Made by a program: the position numbers and the translations under genes. 40,773 bases of DNA from Planctomycetota bacterium. GTDB lineage: Bacteria; Planctomycetota; MHYJ01; JACPRB01. The notes beneath the pieces are model-generated. The model did no database searches. It saw only the letters and a program-made list of their open reading frames with translations, and was not told the origin of the DNA. Position 1 is the first letter of the stretch; each line of letters begins with the position of its first letter. Where the stretch lies: assembly GCA_035574235.1 (NCBI GenBank), contig DATLZA010000113.1, positions 1 through 40,773 on the forward strand, given 5' to 3'. Positions 8,104 to 17,264 of this stretch are shown in pieces.

Positions 8104-8148
8104 TGGAGCGGGCGACCGGATTTGAACCGGCGACCTTCTCGTTGGCAA
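8104..8148. repeat. Left attachment-site repeat (tRNA-Gly 3' fragment)
   Basis: A 45-bp exact copy of 17190-17234. It contains only the region corresponding to the anticodon loop, T arm, acceptor 3' strand and CCA, so it is not a working tRNA gene. It marks the far end of the integrated element; crossover in the anticodon-loop region is usual for tyrosine integrases using tRNA targets. Confidence 0.93.
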
Positions 8149-8232
8149 TTCCGCTGAAGGGGGCCACGCAGCGAAATCGACGCGAATTTTACGCCTCGCA
8201 GCGCACGCAAGGAAGCAAAAATAACCCTGCTT

Positions 8233-8250
8233 GTCACCACGGCGTCACCA
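8233..8250 (+). repeat. Left pair of candidate integrase arm sites
   Basis: GTCACCA at 8233-8239 and again at 8244-8250, 11 bp apart in the same orientation. TTGTCACCAC (8231-8240) recurs exactly at 17161-17170 at the other end of the element, also in an 11-bp pair. Confidence 0.6.
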
Positions 8251-8385
8251 TCGCTCTTCTCGTTGTCGGGGAGAAAGTCGTCTCCTCGTTTGTGCATTCC
8301 CGCCCGTGCGCAAGCGAGGGCGGCTCTTCGCCGGGCGGCGGCCCGCCGTTTCTCCTCGAAGCAGAAGGGCGTTTGGCTCCCCGGT

Positions 8386-8412
8386 CCGCCCCCGGGCTCC
8401 ACCCGGGGGCGG
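8386..8412. repeat. Perfect 11-bp-stem hairpin, copy 1 of a duplicated motif
   Basis: CCGCCCCCGGG, loop CTCCA, CCCGGGGGCGG. The first 24 bases (8386-8409) recur exactly at 15050-15073 near the other end of the element. There is no adjacent T-run, so a simple intrinsic terminator is not obvious. Confidence 0.75.
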
Positions 8413-9009
8413 ACGCAGCGGCGTCCTTCTCGTCAAAGGCGCATTGTTTTGCGAGATTCCGGAAGGTTTCTGCTCGAATGGCGGAGTTCCCGCGTCTTCT
8501 CGAAGAACGCGTGCTCCAACGCCATCTCACCCCGTGGCGCGTGGATCGGCGCAAGATGCAGACAAGGGCGTGGAGGCGTTCGAAAACTCGCCTGCGGGGA
8601 AAATGAACGCCCTGGCGTACGTCCTACGGAGCTTCGAGGACGGCGCAGAGACCGCGATGATTGCCCCCCCCTTCCGCCGCGCCCCCCTCCGGTTGGGGGG
8701 CGGGCGGGGCTACGAGGGGTATTGAGAAGAAGCTGAACGAAGGGGTGGGCACCCTGCCCCGGAGAAGAGCCCTTCCAGTTCAGATAATTGACTCTCCTCG
8801 AATGCGGCGAACGTTCCCCAATGTTGCATGATTTTTGGTGTAGACTAACGGAAGTCGGCACAGCGAGATGGAGAGGGTTCGTTCCCAAACGCAGCAGGTG
8901 AAGCGATGGAGGACGGTCAAGAATGTGGACTGGCTAGCCCCTTCGGGAGCCCGACGGAAATTAGGGCAACCCCCAAGAAGAGGGTGAAACGTCTAAGCGG
9001 GAGGTCTGT

Positions 9010-9930
9010 ATGAACTTCAGAATCATCCTGGTCTTGCTCATCATTCCAAAGGTGCTCTCAGGGCAAGTTCCTCCCACGGAAGAGGATGCAAAGAAGGCGG
9101 AGGCGATACTTTCGAACAACCCCGAAGATGCTTCCGCAAATCTCGTACTTGGCAAATATCTTGCGTTCGTGAGAGAGGATTGGGATAGAGCCGTTTCCTT
9201 CCTTTCGAAGGGATCCGATCCCGCTCTGAAGAGAGCAGCTCTTGAGGAGCAGTCTCCTGTGCAAGACGGACAACAAAAGGTTCGGATCGGTGATGCTTGG
9301 ATAGATGCCACGAAAAAGTTTCCTTCATTTCGTGAGGAGATATACGGAAGAGCAATTTACTGGTACATGAAAGCACTTCAAGATCTCGATGAAGTCGGAA
9401 GAATGAAGCTTATTGAAAGAGCCAGGAAAATGTCCGCCTCCCCTGGCGGAAGAGGGGTTATCAGGGGTCAGGCGAGAAATTGGGATCCGTTTGCAGGAAC
9501 CGGTTCATCTCTCGATGGCACGTTTTCTCATTCTGGGCGTGTTTCGGTAAGAATTTCATCCGAAGTAAAAGCACCGAGGCCAAACTTTCCAAGGATCAAA
9601 AGCGAGTCCATTCTTGTTCCTGTCGGCGCTAAAAAGGCTGTGCTTTCGGCCTGGGTCCGGAGCGAAGGGACAGAACCGAATCGTGATGCGCTCCAAGTTG
9701 GGTTCTGGGATGCAGGCCGAAACGGTATCACGCAGGGGGGACCGATCATACCAGCTGATCATCCATTTTGGGTTCGTATTGATAAAACGGTTGAGGTTCC
9801 TGAGCAAGCATCCCGGATGGAAGTTTGGGTTGTGATGGATTCCACTAAGGGAACAATATGGATCGATGATGTTTCTCTTGTGGTTGCTGGCAAAGAACTT
9901 CTTAAAAATGGCGGATTTGAAGAACGGTGA
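9010..9930 (+). CDS. Secreted TPR-like protein with C-terminal carbohydrate-binding-like beta-sandwich (cargo)
   Basis: 306 residues. The signal peptide is MNFRIILVLLIIPKVLSG, likely cleaved before QVPPTEED. Residues about 22-145 are helical and TPR-like (DASANLVLGKYLAFVREDWDRA; IYGRAIYWYMKALQDLDEV). Residues about 155-300 look like a CBM/discoidin-type jelly roll, with AVLSAWVRSEG, IWIDDVSLVV and an ending of KNGGFEER. GGGAGG at 8999-9004 precedes the ATG by 5 nt. This gene is clearly AT-richer than everything around it (many AAA, GAA, ATT and TTT codons), which supports recent acquisition with the element. TPR plus jelly-roll proteins of this kind are common secreted proteins in planctomycetes; the ligand is unknown and the role of the protein as element cargo is inference. 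Confidence 0.82.
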   Translation: MNFRIILVLLIIPKVLSGQVPPTEEDAKKAEAILSNNPEDASANLVLGKYLAFVREDWDRAVSFLSKGSDPALKRAALEEQSPVQDGQQKVRIGDAWIDATKKFPSFREEIYGRAIYWYMKALQDLDEVGRMKLIERARKMSASPGGRGVIRGQARNWDPFAGTGSSLDGTFSHSGRVSVRISSEVKAPRPNFPRIKSESILVPVGAKKAVLSAWVRSEGTEPNRDALQVGFWDAGRNGITQGGPIIPADHPFWVRIDKTVEVPEQASRMEVWVVMDSTKGTIWIDDVSLVVAGKELLKNGGFEER

Positions 9931-9950
9931 GTGCTGGGGATGCTTGGGGA

Positions 9951-9987
9951 ATGTCCTGAAGCTCCCTGCATTTGAAGGAAGGGCCTC
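9951..9987 (+). repeat. Direct repeat copy A flanking the 10344 gene
   Basis: ATGTCCTGAA, a 10-bp variable spacer, then TTTGAAGGAAGGGCCTC. Copy B at 10780-10817 has the same two blocks with an 11-bp spacer and one change (TTTGAAGGAGGGGCCTC). Confidence 0.7.
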
Positions 9988-10286
9988 TGAACCCATAGCG
10001 CAGCCGATTCGTCGGAAATTGGAGAAAACGAAGGAAGGGATGGATATGCGGCATGCGAAAGGGGGGGCAGGACGCTCGCGAAGCGAGGGTCGCCAAGTCG
10101 TGCATGAGGACGCTCAACGCCTCCCCTATCGGTCACCCTCCGGGCGGAGGGTCAAGCGGCGTGACTACCCTTCTTTCTTGTCCGGGAAACCGGGGGCGGT
10201 ACAGATCCCTTGCTGTTCCAGAACTCGCCTGCGCTGTTTCCGAACGGCGTGGGGTTCGTTCTACAGGTCGAGGACGGGCCTCGCCC

Positions 10287-10315
10287 TTCAACCTCTTTCG
10301 ATGGCCCAGTATAAT
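10287..10315 (+). promoter_or_regulatory. Promoter of the 10344 gene
   Basis: A perfect TATAAT at 10310-10315, with a weak TTCAAC at 10287-10292 and a 17-bp spacer. Transcription would begin near 10322, leaving a 20-nt leader that contains GGAGG (10331-10335). Confidence 0.65.
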
Positions 10316-10343
10316 GGATCGTATCTCAGCGGAGGAACACTGG

Positions 10344-10757
10344 ATGGACCACAGGGCGGTCGAGTACTTGGAATTGTCCGGCGGGATCGATACGGCGAAG
10401 CGGTTGATCGCGCGCAATCTGGACAAGTTGGATCTTGATGAACTTGATGACGCCAAGAAGGCAAGGCTCAAGAATGCTGTCCTTACACGCTTCCTTGAAC
10501 GGTTCAAGGAAGGAGCGGCGAAGATCGTTGAATCCACATTCCCCTCGAATGTGCTCGACGAAGCCTTGAAGATCCTCAAGTCGGAGGTGGGGCGGAACAT
10601 GACCTTCTACAACGTGATGGCCGAGTCGCGCTTGGCCGACTTGGCTGAGAAGGAGATCAAGAAGGTGATCGAGGAATTGGAGAAGGAGGAAGACGAAGAG
10701 GAGCGGAAGCGCAAGCAAGAAGAGCGGAAGGACAGGGGAAGCAAAGGAAAGAAGTAG
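10344..10757 (+). CDS. Small helical protein with highly charged C-terminal tail (cargo, unknown function)
   Basis: 137 residues, no signal peptide. Residues 1-100 are helical (VEYLELSGGIDTAKRLIARNL; FPSNVLDEALKILKSEVGRNM) and faintly resemble DUF2059-type domains, but I do not assign the family. Residues about 105-137 are an almost uninterrupted run of E, K, R and D, probably a charged helix or coiled coil. I chose ATG 10344 because GGAGG lies 8 nt upstream and because the earlier in-frame ATG (10314) is inside the TATAAT box. The gene is flanked by two direct repeats, 9951-9987 and 10780-10817, as if it were an inserted cassette. It is the last plus-strand gene before the convergent serine recombinase. 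Confidence 0.72.
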   Translation: MDHRAVEYLELSGGIDTAKRLIARNLDKLDLDELDDAKKARLKNAVLTRFLERFKEGAAKIVESTFPSNVLDEALKILKSEVGRNMTFYNVMAESRLADLAEKEIKKVIEELEKEEDEEERKRKQEERKDRGSKGKK

Positions 10758-10779
10758 GAGGGAGCACATATAGAAGGGG

Positions 10780-10817
10780 ATGTCCTGAAATCCGTTAGGT
10801 TTTGAAGGAGGGGCCTC
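10780..10817 (+). repeat. Direct repeat copy B flanking the 10344 gene
   Basis: ATGTCCTGAA (10780-10789), an 11-bp spacer, then TTTGAAGGAGGGGCCTC (10801-10817). It lies 22 bp after the stop of the charged-tail gene; see copy A at 9951. Confidence 0.7.
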
Positions 10818-10913
10818 CGGCCCGATACGATCGGACCCGAGGTCGACTGAAGGTGCTCCCCCGCCGGGAGCAGATCGAGGAGGAGATACGCTGCTCAGAG
10901 TCGAGCGGGCCGT

Positions 10914-11567
10914 TCAGGAAACGATCGACCGCTGGACCGCCGAACGGGAGGGATCGGCCCCTGGTTCAGAAAAGGCCCTCGGTTCCTTGAGGCGTTTGTG
11001 AACGGTTCCGACCGAAACCCCCAGCGCTTTGGCGATCCGGCGGACGCCGAACCCGCGGGCGCGAAGCTCCCGCAGGAGTTCCCAGTCAATGGGAAGAGGC
11101 GTCCTTCCCAGGCGTTCCCCCGCCGCCCGCTTGCGAGCGAGCGCCGCTTTCACCCGTTCGCTCTTCCGGGCGCTTTCCATGCCGGCAGCCCACCCGGCCA
11201 GGAAGGCCATCACCTCCCCGAAAGGACCTCCGCTATCGAGCCAGGGTTCTCGACAGGAAACGAGCCGCACTCCGGCGGCCTTCAGCCGCCGGAGGAGCGA
11301 CAGAAGATCCACCGGATCCCTCGAAATCCGATCCGCCGCCCAGACGACGAGCGTATAGCCCTTGAGAAGTCCCGCTTCGGCATCCCGCAGGAGGCGCTCC
11401 CGCTGGGGTAGCCTCGGACGCTCCGCCCAGGCGGATCCTACGTCGGCATAGTCATAGCGCGGATCGAGCGCCAGCCCCAGACGGCCGATCAGGTCCTCCG
11501 TATCCCGATCCTGGTTCTCGATCTTCTCCGAGGGATCGCTCACGCGCCGGTAACGACAGGCCTTCAT
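10914..11567 (-). CDS. Small serine recombinase (resolvase/invertase type)
   Basis: 217 residues. The N-terminal catalytic domain has Y6-R7-R8-V9-S10, the same Arg8/Ser10 positions as gamma-delta resolvase, then QDRDTEDL, VVWAADRISRD (the DRxxRD arginines) and a long helix (MESARKSERVKAALARKRAAGERLGR). Residues about 160-195 form a Hin/resolvase-type helix-turn-helix (ELRARGFGVRRIAKALGVSVGTVHKRL). The start ATG 11567 has AGGAGG 7 nt upstream (11575-11580); a longer frame from 11654 would read through the iteron cluster. It is last in the minus-strand operon. Such enzymes resolve dimers or invert DNA by double-strand exchange via a phosphoserine bond. The repeat clusters at 11585-11611 and 11672-11698, just upstream, are candidate recombination or operator sites. 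Confidence 0.92.
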   Translation of the reverse strand: MKACRYRRVSDPSEKIENQDRDTEDLIGRLGLALDPRYDYADVGSAWAERPRLPQRERLLRDAEAGLLKGYTLVVWAADRISRDPVDLLSLLRRLKAAGVRLVSCREPWLDSGGPFGEVMAFLAGWAAGMESARKSERVKAALARKRAAGERLGRTPLPIDWELLRELRARGFGVRRIAKALGVSVGTVHKRLKEPRAFSEPGADPSRSAVQRSIVS

Positions 11568-11584
11568 CCCTATACCTCCTGAAA

Positions 11585-11611
11585 CCGGCACAAGCGGCAC
11601 AAGTGGCACAG
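11585..11611 (-). repeat. Three tandem 9-bp iterons, cluster 1 (inverted relative to cluster 2)
   Basis: Read on the minus strand: CTGTGCCAC, TTGTGCCGC, TTGTGCCGG, head to tail without gaps. It lies in the 73-bp leader between the serine recombinase and the 74-residue gene upstream of it. Confidence 0.75.
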
Positions 11612-11640
11612 GCTGTAATCTGGCACTAAGGGCTTGGTGC

Positions 11641-11865
11641 TCAAGCGCTTTCATCCGAAAGACTCATGGTTTTGTGCCGGTTGTGCCACTTGTGCCGCTT
11701 TGTGGGGGGTATACCCTCCTTGAGCCGCTTGATCACCCGGTCCCTGTAGAACTCCAGAAGCTCGCGCATTGCTTCGTGTCCTTCGCAGGAAGGGCCGTGA
11801 ATCGCACGCTCCGCCTGCACGAGCTCCTCGAGCACGGCGTTCATGACGGCTTCGACAGCTTTCAC
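11641..11865 (-). CDS. Small protein of unknown function
   Basis: 74 residues, helical (AVMNAVLEELVQAERAIHG; MRELLEFYRDRVIKRLKEG) with a basic tail RHKWHNRHK formed by the iteron cluster. I chose GTG 11865 because AGGAGG precedes it by 9 nt and it begins 4 nt after the stop of the upstream gene, as in the rest of the operon; ATG 11844 is an alternative. The basic tail and small size would fit a DNA-binding accessory protein, but no family is recognised. Confidence 0.6.
   Translation of the reverse strand: MKAVEAVMNAVLEELVQAERAIHGPSCEGHEAMRELLEFYRDRVIKRLKEGIPPTKRHKWHNRHKTMSLSDESA
11672..11698 (+). repeat. Three tandem 9-bp iterons, cluster 2
   Basis: Read on the plus strand: TTGTGCCGG, TTGTGCCAC, TTGTGCCGC, followed by a partial TTTGTG. 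About 19 bp form a perfect inverted repeat with cluster 1, 71 bp away. It lies inside the 3' end of the 74-residue gene and produces its KRHKWHNRHK tail. Confidence 0.75.
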
Positions 11866-11869
11866 CGTC

Positions 11870-12415
11870 TTATCCCTCCTCCCCCGGCTCCCGTTGGCGC
11901 GCAGGCGGGCAGGACGCCTCACCCTCCCGCCGGGCCGTCCGGACCAGCTCCCGAACCGCCTGGTTGACCTTCTCCCGGACCACCCTTCGGGCTTCCTTGA
12001 CCAGCTCCCGCTCCTCGGGAACCGGCGGCTTCGAACGTGCCCTTTCGTACGCCTTGCCGAGGTGGTCGAGGACGGTATCCGTGGAGGCGTCCGGGATGAT
12101 GCCGCGGTCGTAGAATTCCTGAGCCAGTTCGTCGGCGGGGACGCAGCGGGTCTTCCTGCCGTGCAGCGCCCTCGGCAGACGGTTCCGCCATTCTTCGAGC
12201 GTCATGCCGCCCGGAAAGCAGACGCCCCCTCGGTTCCGGACGTCTTTGATGAGCGCCCGATCAAGCTCGGTGGTCTGGCGGTGCTCCTCCCGAACTTTGC
12301 GGAGAATCTCCTGGGCTACCCTCTCGGGACACGCCAAGGCGATCCGGCGGAGCTCACGAGCGGCGAGTTCCCTTTGCGCCGCCTGACCCGCCCGGCGTAG
12401 CTGCATACGGCTCAT
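11870..12415 (-). CDS. Unknown helical protein in the element operon
   Basis: 181 residues, rich in R and E, mostly helical. There is an internal segment with WRNRLPRALHG and DELAQEFYDRGIIPDASTDTVLDHLGKAYER. No signal peptide, membrane segment or known catalytic motif. The ATG at 12415 overlaps the stop of the coiled-coil gene (ATGA), so translation is coupled. Its start codon sits directly beside the 51-bp near-palindrome at 12417-12467, which could affect initiation. The arrangement and charge fit an accessory replication or regulatory protein of the element; that is inference only. Confidence 0.72.
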   Translation of the reverse strand: MSRMQLRRAGQAAQRELAARELRRIALACPERVAQEILRKVREEHRQTTELDRALIKDVRNRGGVCFPGGMTLEEWRNRLPRALHGRKTRCVPADELAQEFYDRGIIPDASTDTVLDHLGKAYERARSKPPVPEERELVKEARRVVREKVNQAVRELVRTARREGEASCPPARQREPGEEG

Positions 12416-12882
12416 GGGGTGCCCACCTGCCCACTGCCCACCGTGGGCACCTGGGCACTGGGCACCCCCCCTTCCTGGGGGGTGCCCGCCTGCCCCGAAA
12501 GCTCCGTAGCGCCCGGCGGCATGGCAGCAGGTTCGTCCGTCCCCCGTGGCAGGGCGCAGATCGGGCGGATGGCCTCCAGGCGCCGTTCCGCTTCTTCCAC
12601 CTTGCGCAAGAGCACCTCTCGTTCGACTTCGGGGAGCTGCCGCACCGCTTCGCGCGCCGCCAGCACCGCCGCCTGGAGTTCGCTCTGCCGGCCGCATTCG
12701 GTGGAGAGACGCCCGAAGGCCGAGGTGGTGCGCACGCGGAAGCGGGAGATATCCTTTTCGAGCTTTCGGACCTTCGCTCGCGCTATAGACGCTGAAATGA
12801 ACGCCGGGACGAGACCCATCTCGGAGTTTGCGCGCTTGAAACGCGCGTCCAGGCTTGAGAGCCGGAAGGGGGAGTCCGTCAT
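12412..12882 (-). CDS. Coiled-coil protein of the element operon
   Basis: 156 residues. Residues about 10-110 are predicted helix or coiled coil (ARAKVRKLEKDISRF; QAAVLAAREAVRQLPEVEREVLLRKVEEAERRLEAI). The last 40 residues are low-complexity G/P/T/V/A (GQAGTPQEGGVPSAQVPT) and are simply the translation of the repeat block 12417-12486, so the DNA structure, not the protein, may be under selection there. ATG 12882 has AGGAGG 8 nt upstream, and its stop overlaps the next ATG. Function unknown. Confidence 0.75.
   Translation of the reverse strand: MTDSPFRLSSLDARFKRANSEMGLVPAFISASIARAKVRKLEKDISRFRVRTTSAFGRLSTECGRQSELQAAVLAAREAVRQLPEVEREVLLRKVEEAERRLEAIRPICALPRGTDEPAAMPPGATELSGQAGTPQEGGVPSAQVPTVGSGQVGTP
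12417..12467. repeat. 51-bp near-palindrome built from TGCCCA units
   Basis: Two 25-bp arms around one central base (12442). The left arm has three direct TGCCCAC units; the right arm has the same units inverted (GTGGGCA, CTGGGCA, CTGGGCA). The outer 9 bp and inner 7 bp of the arms match exactly and the middle is shifted by one base. It lies inside the 3' end of the coiled-coil gene. Confidence 0.75.
12461..12486. repeat. 10-bp-stem hairpin adjoining the palindrome
   Basis: GGCACCCCCC (12461-12470), a 6-nt loop, then GGGGGGTGCC (12477-12486). It overlaps the right end of the 51-bp palindrome, so the two structures exclude each other. Confidence 0.7.
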
Positions 12883-12894
12883 AAGCAGCGCCTC

Positions 12895-13464
12895 CTACGA
12901 GAGAATCGCAAGGTAAGCCGAATTACACCTCTGGCAAACAAGACGAGGGAGGAGCCCCTGCCCGCACCCAGGGCAGGGGCTCCGGAGGGTGGCCAGCGCA
13001 TTCGCGAGTCTTGCGGTTTCCCATTTCTGGCGTTCGACTTCGGCCTCGAGGGCTTCAAGGCGGCGCACAAGCTCCGGAAGAGGGGCGCGCCTCTGGGATT
13101 CGTACCGATCGAGAGAGGCCAAGGTCTTGGCTACGCGGGCTACTGCTGCAGGATCCCTCCCCGAGCGGATGATTTCGTCGCCTGTGCGGCCGTCGAGGAA
13201 CGCCCTGGCGATCTCGACATCCTGAGGATCCTCGAGAAAGCTGGCTGAGGAATTTTTGAGTAATTCCGTGCGGAATTTTTGAGGAATTTCCCCATCCGAA
13301 TTCCTATAGGGAATTTCCCCACCTGTCCCATTTGGGACATCCCGGAGGTATCGGGCTACGGTCTTCCGGTCCTTGCGGAGACGTCTCGAAATCTGAGCAA
13401 TGCTTAAGCCCTGGTCCCGCAGGTGGGCTACACGTTCCTTGAGCGTGGGAGTGCCCATGCTCAT
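12895..13464 (-). CDS. HTH protein with C-terminal zinc ribbon
   Basis: 189 residues. The N-terminal helix-turn-helix (residues about 8-40: RVAHLRDQGLSIAQISRRLRKDRKTVARYLRD) resembles transposase or sigma-like HTHs. It is followed by a linker with two GEIP repeats (encoded by the AT-rich repeat patch), a coiled coil (about 130-160) and a four-cysteine zinc ribbon, C164-x2-C167 and C177-x2-C180 (CPGCGQ … CQRC). ATG 13464 overlaps the upstream stop (ATGA). The combination of specific DNA binding, coiled coil and zinc ribbon is suited to a replication initiator, primase-associated factor or regulator of the element. Which one cannot be decided from sequence. Confidence 0.8.
   Translation of the reverse strand: MSMGTPTLKERVAHLRDQGLSIAQISRRLRKDRKTVARYLRDVPNGTGGEIPYRNSDGEIPQKFRTELLKNSSASFLEDPQDVEIARAFLDGRTGDEIIRSGRDPAAVARVAKTLASLDRYESQRRAPLPELVRRLEALEAEVERQKWETARLANALATLRSPCPGCGQGLLPRLVCQRCNSAYLAILS
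13247..13339. repeat. AT-rich cluster of short direct and inverted repeats
   Basis: GGAATTTTTGAG occurs at 13249-13260 and 13272-13283; GGAATTTCCCCA at 13283-13294 and 13310-13321. A near-palindrome around GAATTCCTATAGGGAATT (13298-13315) and TGTCCCA/TGGGACA (13324-13330/13333-13339) follow. The patch is the most AT-rich stretch of the minus-strand operon and lies inside the HTH/zinc-ribbon gene. Confidence 0.7.
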
Positions 13465-13814
13465 GACATCACCTTCTTCCTGGAGCGCTTCGGAAGGGCG
13501 GCCTCTTCCGCGGCCGCTTCCTCGGCTTGGGCCAGGAGGATCTCCTCCGGGGGACTATCGATGAGCCGCTTGTTGCACCCTTCGGGGCATTCGAGAAGCC
13601 GGAGCTGGGTAAGTTTGCGGATCGCAGCCAGGTGGCGGTAGGCGTTCCAGTAGTGCTCCAGATTCCACCCGCAATCACTGCACCACAGCGCCACCAACCC
13701 CCTTCCGCATGCCCGGCAGGCGATCCAGCGTGCCGCACGGCCGTACTTGCGGACCGTGACGAGTCCGAGGCCGAGTTTGGAGAGGAGGAGGGAGGAAGAA
13801 TACCACGGGGTCAT
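13461..13814 (-). CDS. Small zinc-ribbon protein
   Basis: 117 residues. A four-cysteine zinc ribbon is formed by C33-x2-C36 and C45-x2-C48 (CRACGRGLVALWCSDC), and a further CPEGC occurs near residue 81. The C-terminus is acidic then basic (LLAQAEEAAAEEAALPKRSRKK). ATG 13814 has AGGAGG 7 nt upstream and overlaps the DUF3631 stop; its own stop overlaps the next ATG. Between an ATPase and an HTH protein, it is probably a nucleic-acid-binding partner of the element's replication or regulatory apparatus. A longer frame to 14000 exists but reads into the ATPase gene and is rejected. Confidence 0.8.
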   Translation of the reverse strand: MTPWYSSSLLLSKLGLGLVTVRKYGRAARWIACRACGRGLVALWCSDCGWNLEHYWNAYRHLAAIRKLTQLRLLECPEGCNKRLIDSPPEEILLAQAEEAAAEEAALPKRSRKKVMS

Positions 13815-14995
13815 GAGCTCGCCTCCTCGGGGGTGGCGGAGCTGGCAGGTGGCGGCGGAGTGGCGGCGGTCGCGTCCGCCGGCGGCGCGGATGGGCAGTC
13901 CGTGGTGGGCGACGTGTGGGGACGTCTGGGCCGCGCGGCGTACGCCTCCCACGCACGCCGCAGGTCTCGGACCGCGTAGCCGCGCACGGTGGTCGTGCAC
14001 ACGCGCGCGTGGACGGGCGCGACTCCATATGCCGCCAGAATCCGTGCCAAGCGGTGGGGGGTCATGCCGCCCCGCCAGTCCGCCCAGGGTGCGTCATCTA
14101 TGGCGGACACGGCCCAGACAATGTCCCGCGTCGGCCATACATCGACGCCCACGGGACACGCCGCCTGCAGCTCCCTGAGCAGCCGCACCCCGACGTCCAC
14201 CTCCGCGGCCGCGGCGGTGCGCTCCGCCTCCGAGGAGAGCCGGACGGCAGCCCGCCGCAGGCGCGCGGGCCACGGTCCGCCTGCGACCTCCGCAATCGCC
14301 AAAAGCGGCGTCCATAGGTCCGCAGACCTGTCAGACAGCTCCCTCGGGATCCGCGGCCGCGCCGCTCGGATGGCGTCCGCCACGGACTCGACCCACCGGC
14401 CGATGTGCTCGCGGATGGACGCATACCGGGCAAGTATGTCCCGCGTCGCGCGTGCCATTCCGCGCGGCCGGCGGTGGCGCACGAGCTGGACCTCGATGCA
14501 TCTGGACAGGAGTGCGGCCTCCCGCGGACGACCGATCATGGCGATCGCCACGGGCGCGAAAACCTGATAGTCCACCGTGATCCATGCGTCGTCGCGCCGC
14601 ACGCACCGCGGGACGGTGCCGTCCGCCTCCCACCCCGCGTCCATCACGGCCAGGAGATCGGGGTGCGGGTCCTCCAGGACGTGGTGGCCCTCGTCGATGA
14701 GGATCGTGGCCGGCCCCACCTCCAGCCGCCTCCATATGCTGGCCGCCGTAGGAGCTATCATCGGCCGGCCCTCGTCCGCAAGTGCCGCCACGACCCTCAG
14801 CAGCGTCGTCTTGCCGGAGGCCGGAGGTGCGGTCAGGAGCAGGCGGGGCGACACCTCGACGACGCGCCGCGTGGCGGCGAAGGTGTGGACGACCCACGCC
14901 GCCACCGCGTCGGCCTGGGCGGCGTCCAAGACCACGTGTCGGCAGATGATGGCGCGCACGACGTCGAGGAGTCGGCGGCCACGATCGCAGCTCAT
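13811..14995 (-). CDS. DUF3631-type P-loop ATPase (helicase/primase-associated)
   Basis: 394 residues. Walker A is APPASGKTT (56-64), Walker B is ILIDE (98-102), and the downstream FAPVAIAMIGRP, followed by a conserved arginine-rich segment (SRCIEVQLVRHRRPRG), is characteristic of DUF3631 proteins, which accompany primases and replicative helicases in plasmids, phages and integrative elements. The C-terminal 60 residues are Pro/Ala/Thr-rich. ATG 14995 has AGGAGG 7 nt upstream and overlaps the stop of the HTH gene (ATGCCATGA arrangement). Likely a DNA-dependent ATPase for element replication. No primase domain is fused, so a host primase, or one of the zinc-ribbon proteins, would have to help. 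Function beyond ATP binding is inference from the family. Confidence 0.85.
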   Translation of the reverse strand: MSCDRGRRLLDVVRAIICRHVVLDAAQADAVAAWVVHTFAATRRVVEVSPRLLLTAPPASGKTTLLRVVAALADEGRPMIAPTAASIWRRLEVGPATILIDEGHHVLEDPHPDLLAVMDAGWEADGTVPRCVRRDDAWITVDYQVFAPVAIAMIGRPREAALLSRCIEVQLVRHRRPRGMARATRDILARYASIREHIGRWVESVADAIRAARPRIPRELSDRSADLWTPLLAIAEVAGGPWPARLRRAAVRLSSEAERTAAAAEVDVGVRLLRELQAACPVGVDVWPTRDIVWAVSAIDDAPWADWRGGMTPHRLARILAAYGVAPVHARVCTTTVRGYAVRDLRRAWEAYAARPRRPHTSPTTDCPSAPPADATAATPPPPASSATPEEASS

Positions 14996-15276
14996 GGCAT
15001 GACCTCCTTGTGGCTCGGAGAGGAGGGTGCAGGCGAGTGGGCGGCCCCGCCGCCCCCGGGCTCCACCCGGGGGACGGCGGGGACCTCCCCGTGGCTGCCT
15101 ATGCCGAGCCATCGCTCGAGCGCCGCGCGGGTCACACGTACGTGCCGGCGCCGTATGCCACTGCCGATGCAGACGGCAGCCAGGTTCCCACGGGCGATGG
15201 CCGCCCGGAGCGTAGCCGGTGAGACCCTCGCGATCGCGGCGGCCTCCCGGACCCGCAGGACTCCGCGCTCTAACAT
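14992..15276 (-). CDS. Excisionase/AlpA-like helix-turn-helix protein
   Basis: 94 residues. Residues 5-57 form a MerR-like HTH of the excisionase type (LRVREAAAIARVSPATLRAAIARGNLAAV … RRHVRVTRAALERWL). The tail of about 35 residues is Gly/Pro/Ser-rich and is encoded by the large hairpin at 15045-15082. ATG 15276 lacks a good RBS. It is the first gene of the minus-strand operon. Such proteins bend DNA and steer the integrase towards excision, or activate integrase genes, as AlpA does. The integrase is 750 bp away on the same strand. Confidence 0.85.
   Translation of the reverse strand: MLERGVLRVREAAAIARVSPATLRAAIARGNLAAVCIGSGIRRRHVRVTRAALERWLGIGSHGEVPAVPRVEPGGGGAAHSPAPSSPSHKEVMP
15045..15082. 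repeat. 16-bp-stem hairpin, copy 2 of the duplicated motif
   Basis: Inner stem CCCCCGGG / CCCGGGGG with loop CTCCA, and outer stem CCCCGCCG (15045-15052) / CGGCGGGG (15075-15082) with a single bulged A at 15074. Bases 15050-15073 are identical to 8386-8409. It lies inside the HTH gene. Confidence 0.8.
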
Positions 15277-15313
15277 TGCGCTGGACGCCCTCGAAATCCT
15301 CCGCTATCTTGCG

Positions 15314-15973
15314 GTGGTGCAGCGCCGCACCACTCGACGCCGGTCCCGCGTGCCCGAATACGTCCTTGCAGAGGACCGCTGGAAGGCCGTTTCGGAGAAG
15401 TTCGAGAACGCAATCGAAGTGCTGAGGCGGCATTTCATCCCTCGCAGCAACTCCTGGAGGTATCTAATCCTCCCGAAAGGTCATAATGCGGGACCTTTCG
15501 TCGTGCCACCTCGCGGCGAGGCGGATCCTCGCGTACCATGGGATTCGCCCCAAGCCGCCCATGCCGCGCTGGGGGTTCTCCTTACGTGGCTCATCACGGG
15601 GATGTCGACCCGAGAGTTGGCGCGGAGATGCCACGTGTTGATGCGGACCGTCGTGCCTAGAGGCGATACCCGAACTCGTCTTATCCGCTTCAGGAGGGAC
15701 GCATGTCAGTTCGTGTTCGGGACGTCGGACTTGGAAAAAGTATTTGATAAATTCAGCCCCCTCCGCAAAAAAACGAGCAAAGACATTGCCCCCGGAGATC
15801 GGGATCTGCCCCCCGCGGAATGGTGGAAGAGGCATAGCCATCTTTTGCCCCCGGAGATCGAGCGCAGAACTTCACGCGGAGTAAAAGTCCGAGGGCGCGA
15901 ACTGGCAGTGGGGGATTCAAATATTCTCGACAGCCTGGTGTACGAAAGGATCAAGTCCAGGCATCGGAGATGA
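15314..15973 (+). CDS. Unknown protein, start uncertain
   Basis: About 219 residues if it starts at GTG 15314. The translation has normal composition (VPEYVLAEDRWKAVSEKFENAIEVLRRHFIP; DACQFVFGTSDLEKVFDKFSP; NILDSLVYERIKSRHRR), unlike the shadow frames beside it, so I think it is a gene. I see no RBS at any candidate start, and the frame continues upstream into the opposite-strand genes, so a 5' truncation is also possible. It diverges from the HTH gene and converges on the integrase, with a hairpin between. It lies on the opposite strand to the operon, as a repressor or toxin might, but no motif supports either. Confidence 0.5.
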   Translation: MVQRRTTRRRSRVPEYVLAEDRWKAVSEKFENAIEVLRRHFIPRSNSWRYLILPKGHNAGPFVVPPRGEADPRVPWDSPQAAHAALGVLLTWLITGMSTRELARRCHVLMRTVVPRGDTRTRLIRFRRDACQFVFGTSDLEKVFDKFSPLRKKTSKDIAPGDRDLPPAEWWKRHSHLLPPEIERRTSRGVKVRGRELAVGDSNILDSLVYERIKSRHRR

Positions 15974-16027: not shown

Positions 16028-17098
16028 CTACGGCGCCGTCTTCGGGGCCGGGACGACGACGGGAGGCGCAATCTGCACGCTGCCCATGTAGTGGCGGGCC
16101 AGGACACGTCCGTCCCGCCAGCCCCCCAGCCTCACCAGAACCGGCAACGAAACGTGCGGCGCCGTCGCGGTCGCCCAGGACCGCCGGAGCGCGTGCGGCG
16201 TCACTTCCTCCGGCCGCTTGAGCCCCGCGCGCCGGGCCGCCAGGATCATGTCCCGCCTCACATTGTCCCGTGACAATTTGGTCCCCTTCGAGCTGGCGAA
16301 GACCAGCCCCCCGCCGGAGGCGAGCAACCGCCGGCGCAGTACGGCCAGCACGGCGTCGTTCGCCTTGATCTGGCGGTGTTCATAGACCTTCGTCGATCGG
16401 ATGGTGATCAGCCCTCGCTCCAGATCCACGTCGTCGGCCGTCAGCGACAGCGCCTCGCTGATCCGACACCCTACGTTCGAGAGGAAAACGACCAGGTCCC
16501 GCAACGTCTCGTTGGCGCATGCGGCGGCGAGCTTCGAGAGCTCCTCGCCGTCGAGAACCCGCTTGACGTGAGTCGTCACGGGAAGCATGCGGAGATGCTC
16601 CACCGGATTTTCCCGGACGTATCCGGAAAAAAGCGCCCAGCGGAAGAGAGAGCCCACCCGCGAAAGGTGCGTGTTGACCGTGACCGGGGAGTACGGATGG
16701 CCCTTCGGGCTCTTCGACGCCAGGAGCGCCTGGCGGTACGCCTCGATGTCCCGCCGGGTCACCTTGTCGAGAAGCGTGAGCTTCCGCTCCCTGCACCAGG
16801 CGGCGAAGCGTCCGAGAATGTTCCGAATGCTCCGGCGGGTGCTCTCGTTCTGGCCTCCCCGGGCGGGGCAATAGTCCTGGAGCGCCTGTTCGATCGTGTA
16901 CGTCGCCGATCCGGCGATATTCCAGCGCCGCCGCACGATGTCGTCGGCCAGCTGGCGGGCGATGGAAAGCGCCCGGTGCCGGTCGGCCGTCTTGAGGTTC
17001 TTGCGCGTCCGCTGTCCGCCGCCGGTGACGTCCAGCCACCAGCTGCCGTGATGCCACCGCAGCGTCACGCCGCGGTCCACAGGGATGGGACCGAACAT
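16028..17098 (-). CDS. Tyrosine recombinase (phage-type integrase)
   Basis: 356 residues from ATG 17098, which has GGAGG 5 nt upstream (17104-17108); a GTG at 17119 would add 7 residues. The N-terminal SAM-like core-binding domain (about 65-165) is followed by the catalytic domain with R212 (GCRISEAL), K237 (RSTK), H302 and R305 (HALRR), W327 in place of the second histidine (LGGWRDG) and nucleophile Y337 (ARHYMG). An N-terminal arm-binding segment precedes the core domain. It lies 91 bp from the intact tRNA-Gly gene and should integrate and excise the element at the anticodon-loop/T-arm region. Arm sites at 8233-8250 and 17152-17169 are candidate binding targets. Confidence 0.95.
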   Translation of the reverse strand: MFGPIPVDRGVTLRWHHGSWWLDVTGGGQRTRKNLKTADRHRALSIARQLADDIVRRRWNIAGSATYTIEQALQDYCPARGGQNESTRRSIRNILGRFAAWCRERKLTLLDKVTRRDIEAYRQALLASKSPKGHPYSPVTVNTHLSRVGSLFRWALFSGYVRENPVEHLRMLPVTTHVKRVLDGEELSKLAAACANETLRDLVVFLSNVGCRISEALSLTADDVDLERGLITIRSTKVYEHRQIKANDAVLAVLRRRLLASGGGLVFASSKGTKLSRDNVRRDMILAARRAGLKRPEEVTPHALRRSWATATAPHVSLPVLVRLGGWRDGRVLARHYMGSVQIAPPVVVPAPKTAP

Positions 17099-17189: not shown

Positions 17190-17234
17190 TGGAGCGGGCG
17201 ACCGGATTTGAACCGGCGACCTTCTCGTTGGCAA
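17190..17234. repeat. Right attachment-site repeat (within tRNA-Gly)
   Basis: A 45-bp exact copy of 8104-8148. It runs from the first base of the anticodon loop to the terminal A of CCA, which is the usual target segment for tRNA-directed tyrosine integrases. Confidence 0.93.
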
Positions 17235-17264
17235 CGAGACGTTCTGCCACTGAACTACGCCCGC
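17190..17264 (-). tRNA. tRNA-Gly (GCC)
   Basis: 75 nt with encoded CCA. The 7-bp acceptor GCGGGCG/CGCCCGC, D stem GTTC/GAAC, anticodon stem TCTCG/CGAGA with loop TTGCCAA (anticodon GCC), and T stem with loop TTCAAAT all fold correctly. It is the intact copy after integration of the element; its 3' 45 bases are repeated at 8104-8148. Confidence 0.97.

What the first reader, a model, noticed from the sequence alone, without database searches (positions are those of the whole stretch)
10914..15276. Eight-gene translationally coupled operon as a possible new replication or mobility module
Excisionase-like HTH, DUF3631 ATPase, zinc-ribbon protein, HTH plus zinc-ribbon protein, coiled-coil protein and two unknown proteins are linked mostly by ATGA overlaps or gaps of a few bases, with AGGAGG-type RBSs, ending in a serine recombinase. 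Several members have no recognised family.
Basis: partly seen in the sequence, partly recalled or inferred. Interest (0 to 1): 0.8.

Follow-up and report, generated by a model that had tools for sequence, protein, structure and literature searches.

The report
Replication operon of a tRNA-inserted mobile element
The eight genes form the excision-and-copying operon of a 9.1-kb mobile DNA element inserted in a glycine tRNA gene; its motor protein belongs to a known family, but following it up showed that such genes often carry a characteristic repeat pattern at their end that looks like the start point for copying the element.

Summary
In detail: eight minus-strand genes, 15276 to 10914, four ATGA overlaps plus gaps of 4 and 12 nt, most with AGGAGG-type ribosome sites. 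They lie in a ~9.1-kb element bounded by a 45-bp repeat of the tRNA-Gly 3' half (8104-8148 / 17190-17234), with a tyrosine integrase beside the tRNA. The core, integrase - HTH_17 - DUF3631, is a known kind: PF12307 is 'RepAM', the replication protein of actinomycete ICEs, and this core recurs in other tRNA/tmRNA islands, terminase- or capsid-carrying satellite-like elements and phages. The five small proteins and the serine recombinase have no counterparts in those islands. A confident model shows DUF3631 as an AAA+ ATPase, nearest to hexameric replicative helicases, not a rolling-circle nuclease; relatives fuse it to Prim-Pol, DnaG-type or DnaB-N domains. New: DUF3631 genes often carry a symmetric iteron array (near CCGNNACA) at their 3' end (strict arrays: 23 of 27 there in the discovery set, 7 of 7 in held-out loci), a candidate origin. 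This element's only strict array (GGCACAA, 11587-11696) is displaced 2.1 kb downstream, before the recombinase. Likely a self-replicating, not self-transmissible integrative element: a new variant of a known kind.

The parts
17190..17264 (-). tRNA-Gly(GCC), integration site; its 3' 45 bases (17190-17234) are one att repeat
   Evidence: ARAGORN; exact 45-bp repeat
8104..8148 (-). second copy of the tRNA-Gly 3' 45 bases: far att site, end of the element
   Evidence: (copy of the tRNA 3' end, 9086 bp apart)
16028..17098 (-). tyrosine integrase, adjacent to the tRNA
   Evidence: PF00589 8.1e-23, phrog_1 1.3e-45
15272..15973 (+). possible divergent gene between integrase and operon (regulator?), start codon unclear
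   Evidence: own-frame codon score best; no family
14992..15276 (-). HTH_17 excisionase-like protein (94 aa), first gene of the operon
   Evidence: PF12728 1.1e-9; TIGR01764 4.8e-6, just under its cut-off
13811..14995 (-). DUF3631 (RepAM-type) AAA+ replication ATPase, 394 aa, Walker A GK62, Walker B DE101-102, C-terminal helix-turn-helix-like domain with two strands (about 286-353)
   Evidence: PF12307 1.5e-33; alignments; AF2 model pLDDT 87.8; Foldseek
13461..13814 (-). Zn-ribbon protein (117 aa), orphan
   Evidence: CRACG...CSDCG motif in sequence; no family; no real relative in 382 genomes
12895..13464 (-). HTH + C-terminal Zn-ribbon protein (189 aa), orphan
   Evidence: HTH_38 2.4e-6; chance hits only in 362 genomes
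13230..13335 (-). AT-rich patch of AATTCC/GGAATT repeats inside the HTH-ZnR gene
   Evidence: GC down to 0.38-0.40; 6 copies, 2 of 400 shuffles reach this
12412..12882 (-). coiled-coil-type protein (156 aa), orphan
   Evidence: no significant family
11870..12415 (-). unknown protein (181 aa), orphan
   Evidence: no family; only chance hits in 392 genomes
11641..11865 (-). small unknown protein (74 aa, GTG start)
11587..11696 (-). symmetric iteron array: three TTGTGCC/GGCACAA at 9-bp period, 61-nt spacer, three inverted copies; candidate replication origin
   Evidence: only strict array in the window, 0 in 300 shuffled windows; coordinates; comparison with other DUF3631 loci
10914..11567 (-). 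small serine recombinase (217 aa) with C-terminal HTH; resolvase/invertase type
   Evidence: PF00239 7.8e-24, phrog_125 8e-32
8149..10900 (.). lower-GC (about 54-57%) far part of the element with plus-strand ORFs 9010-9930 and 10359-10757; cargo
   Evidence: no family

Best explanation
The eight genes are the excision-and-replication operon of a 9.1-kb integrative element in the 3' half of tRNA-Gly(GCC). Shown by sequence: tyrosine integrase next to the tRNA, 45-bp att repeats, an HTH_17 excisionase-like gene directly upstream of and coupled to a DUF3631 gene. Inferred: integrase with the HTH_17 protein cuts the element out as a circle; the DUF3631 protein, an AAA+ helicase-type initiator (RepAM type), loads on an iteron origin and copies the circle with host primase and polymerase; the coupled small DNA-binding/Zn-ribbon proteins are element-specific helpers or regulators; the serine recombinase resolves multimers. 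The best origin candidate in this element is the GGCACAA array at 11587-11696. No conjugation or packaging gene was recognised, so transfer would need a helper.
For: tRNA and exact 45-bp repeat 9086 bp apart. Integrase, HTH_17, DUF3631, resolvase families. [quoted passage not shown] Circular Streptomyces AICE-like records with integrase - HTH - DUF3631 - Prim-Pol - Tra/FtsK. DUF3631 in relatives is fused to Prim-Pol 1.4e-17, DnaG CHC2 zinc finger 2.6e-18, DUF3854 3.8e-13 or DnaB N-terminal 6.6e-11. Model with 36 sequences, pLDDT 87.8; PDB matches led by MCM/CMG, RuvB, AsfvPrimPol, AAV Rep40, best E 1e-6, BFVD led by phage primase-helicases 5e-15. Other bounded tRNA islands with the same core: L006 (38-bp tRNA-Val repeat, about 7.3 kb, in a genome of the same family) and L038 (45-bp tRNA-Arg repeat, about 9.9 kb). 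Iteron arrays at DUF3631 3' ends, confirmed on held-out contigs.
Against: Excision, replication and the roles of all small proteins are untested. The window's DUF3631 has no primase fused or adjacent. Its iteron array is 2.1 kb downstream of DUF3631, whereas most lie at that gene's 3' end, and its spacing (three copies, 61 nt, three copies) is not the commonest one. TM-scores to solved structures are low (about 0.4), so only the AAA+ class, not a closer family, is supported. The HTH_17 match to the excisionase model TIGR01764 is just below its cut-off.
Confidence: 0.72

Rival explanations
1. It is a phage satellite (PICI/cfPICI-like): excises on helper infection, replicates with DUF3631, and is packaged by the helper; one of the orphan proteins redirects packaging.
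For: Cousins with the same core carry packaging genes: L036 TerL (phrog_2 1.7e-26), L078 TerS PF25673 1.5e-27, next to a predicted TerL, L091 TerL 3.5e-13, L063 prohead protease 5e-22 and capsid 1.1e-29. Size of 9.1 kb and tRNA site are typical.
Against: No TerS, TerL, capsid, HNH or other packaging gene recognised in the window element; no helper phage was sought or identified.
Confidence: 0.2
2. It is a decayed remnant of an AICE-like conjugative element that lost Tra and Prim-Pol and no longer moves.
For: RepAM-type core without an FtsK-type Tra or Prim-Pol; PMC3218068 describes Frankia elements lacking tra or rep as remnants or mobilizable. Lower-GC cargo.
Against: All operon genes are open with intact motifs and tight coupling; att repeats are identical over 45 bp, which argues for a fairly recent or maintained insertion.
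Confidence: 0.2
3. The GGCACAA array is not an origin but a binding or crossover site of the serine recombinase, an operator, or an RNA hairpin controlling it.
For: It ends 19 bases upstream of the recombinase start; as RNA it folds strongly (z = -5.9).
Against: Arrays of the same design (8-9-bp period, inverted halves, CGNNACA core) sit at DUF3631 3' ends in many elements; the same CGGCACA motif forms the array of L077 at its DUF3631 gene.
Confidence: 0.35
4. The small genes are a cargo (for example defence) operon unrelated to replication.
For: They are not conserved with DUF3631 elsewhere.
Against: Translational coupling with DUF3631; nothing convincing in PADLOC (best 1.3e-3, an HTH stretch).
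Confidence: 0.2

Closest known systems
Actinomycete integrative and conjugative elements with RepAM (pMEA300 type; PMC3218068)
   Same: tyrosine integrase, tRNA 3' integration, excisionase-like HTH, DUF3631/RepAM replication protein, same int - xis - rep neighbourhood
   Different: no FtsK-type Tra, no Prim-Pol, own set of orphan coupled proteins, terminal serine recombinase; RepAM there was predicted to be a rolling-circle initiator, whereas this model is an AAA+ ATPase
Phage-inducible chromosomal islands and capsid-forming satellites
   Same: small, att-bounded, int - HTH - replication helicase core; DUF3631 cousins with TerS/TerL or capsid genes
   Different: no packaging gene recognised here
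Iteron origins inside or beside initiator genes (SaPI, lambda O; named from general knowledge)
   Same: short repeats clustered at the replication gene; candidate AT-rich patch inside the HTH-ZnR gene
   Different: sequence and symmetric layout differ; in this element the array lies 2.1 kb from DUF3631
AAA+ replicative helicases (MCM, AAV Rep40, AsfvPrimPol)
   Same: overall AAA+ fold by Foldseek
   Different: low TM-scores (about 0.4), no detectable sequence relation

Membership tests
AICE (actinomycete ICE) | site-specific integrase and att repeats in a tRNA 3' end | tested here: met
AICE (actinomycete ICE) | replication protein RepSA, RepAM (PF12307) or Prim-Pol | tested here: met
   PF12307 1.5e-33
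AICE (actinomycete ICE) | excisionase/RDF gene | tested here: inconclusive
   HTH_17 1.1e-9 above cut-off; TIGR01764 26.8 bits against a cut-off of 28.8; function untested
AICE (actinomycete ICE) | FtsK/SpoIIIE-type Tra translocase | tested here: not met
   no such domain in any scanned ORF of the element
AICE (actinomycete ICE) | host in Actinomycetales | not tested
PICI / cfPICI-type phage satellite | integrase plus replication module in an att-bounded island of about 10-15 kb | tested here: met
   9.1 kb
PICI / cfPICI-type phage satellite | packaging or capsid-redirecting genes (TerS, TerL, capsid, cos/pac) | tested here: not met
   none
PICI / cfPICI-type phage satellite | induction and transfer by a helper phage | not testable with these tools
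   needs experiment
DUF3631 / RepAM replication ATPases | PF12307 plus upstream P-loop with Walker A and B | tested here: met
   G61, K62, D101, E102 invariant in 36 sequences
Rolling-circle (RCR) initiator, as predicted for RepAM in 2011 | RCR nuclease fold | tested here: not met
   model is AAA+; Foldseek top matches are helicase/initiator ATPases
DUF3631-linked iteron arrays (defined here) | paired direct and paired inverted 7-mers at 8-11-bp period | tested here: met
   11587-11696
DUF3631-linked iteron arrays (defined here) | location within about 450 bp of the DUF3631 stop | tested here: not met
   array lies 2.1 kb downstream; only CCGCCAC x3 at the gene's 3' end

The most novel reading that the evidence does not exclude
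DUF3631 replicons (AICEs, satellites, phages, tRNA islands) share one origin design: an AAA+ helicase-initiator reading a symmetric iteron array (CCGNNACA, two variable bases setting element-specific identity) normally carried in its own gene's 3' end; in this element the origin has moved to the far end of an operon whose coupled orphan proteins are a new set of origin or replisome helpers.
Probability: 0.4. Interest if true: 0.75.

Novelty: new variant of a known kind. Interest (0 to 1): 0.55.

Why it matters
DUF3631 is still labelled 'unknown function' in Pfam, and the one paper in the held library that names it predicted RepAM to be a rolling-circle initiator. The structural model, the fused primase and DnaB-N domains and the position-specific iteron arrays point instead to a helicase-type initiator with its own origin. 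That is directly testable with a minimal plasmid and a DNA-binding assay, would give a rule for finding origins in a wide range of integrative elements, satellites and phages, and would explain how related elements could coexist without cross-talk. The window's element itself is a moderately unusual member: no primase, five orphan coupled proteins, a resolvase and a displaced array.

Tried and rejected
Conserved eight-gene module: rejected; no counterparts of the downstream proteins in 18 DUF3631 neighbourhoods nor convincing ones in 362-392 genomes of the phylum; the marginal hits sit in ordinary chromosomal surroundings without DUF3631. Only two of the six downstream proteins (serine recombinase, integrase being separate) were not searched genome-wide: coiled-coil and unknown-8 were not, for lack of searches. 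Known phage or plasmid fragment: no close relative; best phage record 31.5% (Phipami28), best plasmids 32%. Defence operon: nothing convincing in PADLOC. Solved relatives by sequence: none. Single-sequence structure model: useless, pLDDT 38.5; the alignment-based one was used. Empty-site test with a flanking gene in related genomes: flanking gene not found elsewhere, so no empty site seen. lambda-O-like origin inside the HTH-ZnR gene (AATTCC patch): possible but weaker statistically (2-5 of 400 shuffles) and without comparative support. Link between the two variable iteron bases and the C-terminal domain of DUF3631: small excess similarity (0.035, permutation p about 0.0025), post hoc and confounded by relatedness, so only suggestive. 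Sigma-70 promoter scan: nothing. Genome-search loci were not handed to the structure predictor, whose stated rule does not list them.
Full report
OBSERVATION. The eight ORFs described are real and lie on the minus strand from 15276 to 10914. Exact junctions are -4, -4, -4, +12, -4, +4 and +73 nt, with AGGAGG-type sites before five of the genes. Codon scoring gives the best score to the annotated frame of each ORF. Families: HTH_17 (1.1e-9), DUF3631 (1.5e-33), HTH_38 (2.4e-6), Resolvase (7.8e-24); the Zn-ribbon, coiled-coil and two unknown proteins have none.

ELEMENT. A tRNA-Gly(GCC) lies at 17190-17264. Its last 45 bases recur exactly at 8104-8148, 9086 bp away. A tyrosine integrase (16028-17098) follows the tRNA directly. 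The operon is thus the inner part of a ~9.1-kb integrative element: tRNA - integrase - (possible divergent gene 15272-15973, plus strand) - eight-gene operon - lower-GC cargo (about 8.1-10.9 kb) - att. No recognised conjugation, primase, terminase or capsid gene was found among the ORFs scanned.

RELATIVES OF THE CORE. DUF3631 relatives (31-36% identity for the good matches) occur in 30 of 392 genomes of the phylum. Their neighbourhoods often hold a tyrosine integrase and an HTH_17 protein, in places beside a tRNA or tmRNA: L006 (38-bp tRNA-Val repeat, about 7.3 kb) and L038 (45-bp tRNA-Arg repeat, about 9.9 kb) are bounded by repeats; L042 and L045 have the integrase next to a tRNA-Val and a tmRNA. 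The best plasmid records are circular 13.5- and 14.3-kb Streptomyces AICE-like elements with integrase - HTH - DUF3631 - Prim-Pol - Tra/FtsK. In IMG/VR, DUF3631 follows integrase and HTH_17 next to a tRNA in L075, L078 and L091, the last two with terminase genes; L063 carries prohead protease and capsid genes; L036 (chromosomal) carries a TerL. The window's Zn-ribbon, HTH-ZnR, coiled-coil, unknowns and serine recombinase have no counterparts in the 18 chromosomal neighbourhoods compared, and genome searches with three of them found only chance hits.

WHAT DUF3631 IS. The only paper in the held library that names DUF3631 (PMC3218068) identifies PF12307 as RepAM, demonstrated to give autonomous replication in AICE pMEA300, and predicts that it is a rolling-circle initiator. 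The evidence here points elsewhere. In relatives the domain is fused to Prim-Pol, DnaG-type zinc finger and core, DUF3854, or the DnaB N-terminal domain. Walker A lysine and Walker B DE are invariant in 36 sequences. A model built from the window protein and 35 related sequences has pLDDT 87.8; its nearest solved structures are MCM/CMG, RuvB, AsfvPrimPol and AAV Rep40 (E from 1e-6, TM about 0.4), and its nearest viral models are primase-helicases (5e-15). The C-terminal part (about 286-353) has helices followed by two strands, compatible with a winged helix; that reading is mine from the secondary structure, not a tested match.

ITERON ARRAYS. Asking where the strongest short-repeat cluster lies in each DUF3631 locus gave an unexpected answer: in 38 of 53 loci it lies in the 600 bp around the DUF3631 stop, with 2.7 expected. 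Written out, many arrays have one layout, two copies at 8-9-bp period, about 43 nt, one copy, about 19 nt, one inverted, about 43 nt, two inverted. The repeat differs from element to element but mostly fits CCGNNACA (CCGCTACA, CCGCCACA, CGTTACA, CGAAACA, CCGTCACA, CGCGACA). The array runs in different reading frames and in several loci beyond the stop codon, so the constraint is on DNA, not protein. A strict detector (two direct and two inverted exact 7-mers at 8-11-bp period) finds 27 arrays in 69 loci (932 kb), 23 of them near the DUF3631 stop, and none in 300 shuffled 40.8-kb windows. The motif-directed test gives 29 of 65 regions; control windows from the same loci reach the five-copy level in 11 of 672 (this control count needed only one copy on each strand, so it is if anything generous). 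Because these patterns were found by looking, I fetched new contigs and repeated the tests on 35 held-out loci: 7 strict arrays, all 7 near the stop and none elsewhere in 311 kb; motif-directed 8 of 35 against 1 of 345 controls. The feature is therefore real but not universal, and some held-out contigs are related to discovery ones.

THE ARRAY IN THIS ELEMENT. The strict detector gives exactly one array in the 40.8-kb window: GGCACAA, three copies at 9-bp period, 61-nt spacer of 50% GC, three inverted copies, 11587-11696. The motif CGGCACA fits CGNNACA and is the same as that of L077, whose array is at its DUF3631 gene. But here the array lies 2.1 kb downstream of DUF3631, between unknown-8 and the serine recombinase, and its layout resembles the simpler form of L078 or L126 rather than the commonest one. 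At the DUF3631 3' end there are only three CCGCCAC copies. Two further repeat patches lie in the operon: AATTCC in the HTH-ZnR gene and a TGCCCA/TGGGCA hairpin at the coiled-coil/unknown-7 junction.

MECHANISM. Most likely: integrase and the HTH_17 protein excise the element; the DUF3631 protein opens an iteron origin and acts as helicase, with host primase; the coupled small proteins regulate or assist; the serine recombinase resolves multimers. Shown: gene content, bounds, coupling, fold class, arrays. Inferred: every activity. Helper-phage packaging and decay of an AICE remain open rivals, and the array may instead serve the recombinase.

VERDICT. The core is a known kind found outside its best-described setting; the accessory set is unexplained; the iteron rule for DUF3631 genes is, as far as the searches of the held library go, undescribed. 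That library lacks most subscription papers, including the original pMEA300 work, so priority is not established.

Noticed in passing
L037, L039, L041, L044, L051, L052, L060, L066, L070, L077 and others, at the DUF3631 3' end: Symmetric iteron arrays fitting CCGNNACA, with element-specific central bases; candidate origins of DUF3631 replicons in general.
   Followed up: yes
window 13230-13335: AT-rich AATTCC/GGAATT repeat patch inside the HTH-ZnR gene, with a TGTCCCAAATGGGACA palindrome beside it.
   Followed up: partly
window 12400-12500: Triple TGCCCA and triple TGGGCA forming a strong hairpin (z = -3.1) right before the unknown-7 start codon; may hide its ribosome site so that it is read only by coupling.
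   Followed up: partly
window 8386-8409 and 15050-15073: Exact 24-nt near-palindromic repeat CCGCCCCCGGGCTCCACCCGGGGG, one copy in the HTH_17 gene, one near the far end of the element.
   Followed up: no
window 8578-8627 and 10215-10264: 50-nt direct repeat at 72% identity in the cargo part, both reading 'ENSPA..'-like peptides on the plus strand.
   Followed up: no
window 15272-15973: Plus-strand ORF without a clear start codon or family between integrase and operon; possible divergent regulator.
   Followed up: partly
L036 6900-17300: About 10-kb island between the tRNA-Trp/rpmG and secE genes with integrase, HTH_17, DUF3631 (one internal stop) and TerL.
   Followed up: partly
L045 7288-11218: tmRNA-adjacent island whose operon order (HTH_17, 192 aa, DUF3631, 203 aa, Zn-ribbon, coiled-coil) resembles the window's by protein type, without sequence similarity.
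   Followed up: no
own genome G000: Six tyrosine recombinase matches (PF00589) in the whole genome, one of them this element's integrase; the others were not examined as further islands.
   Followed up: no
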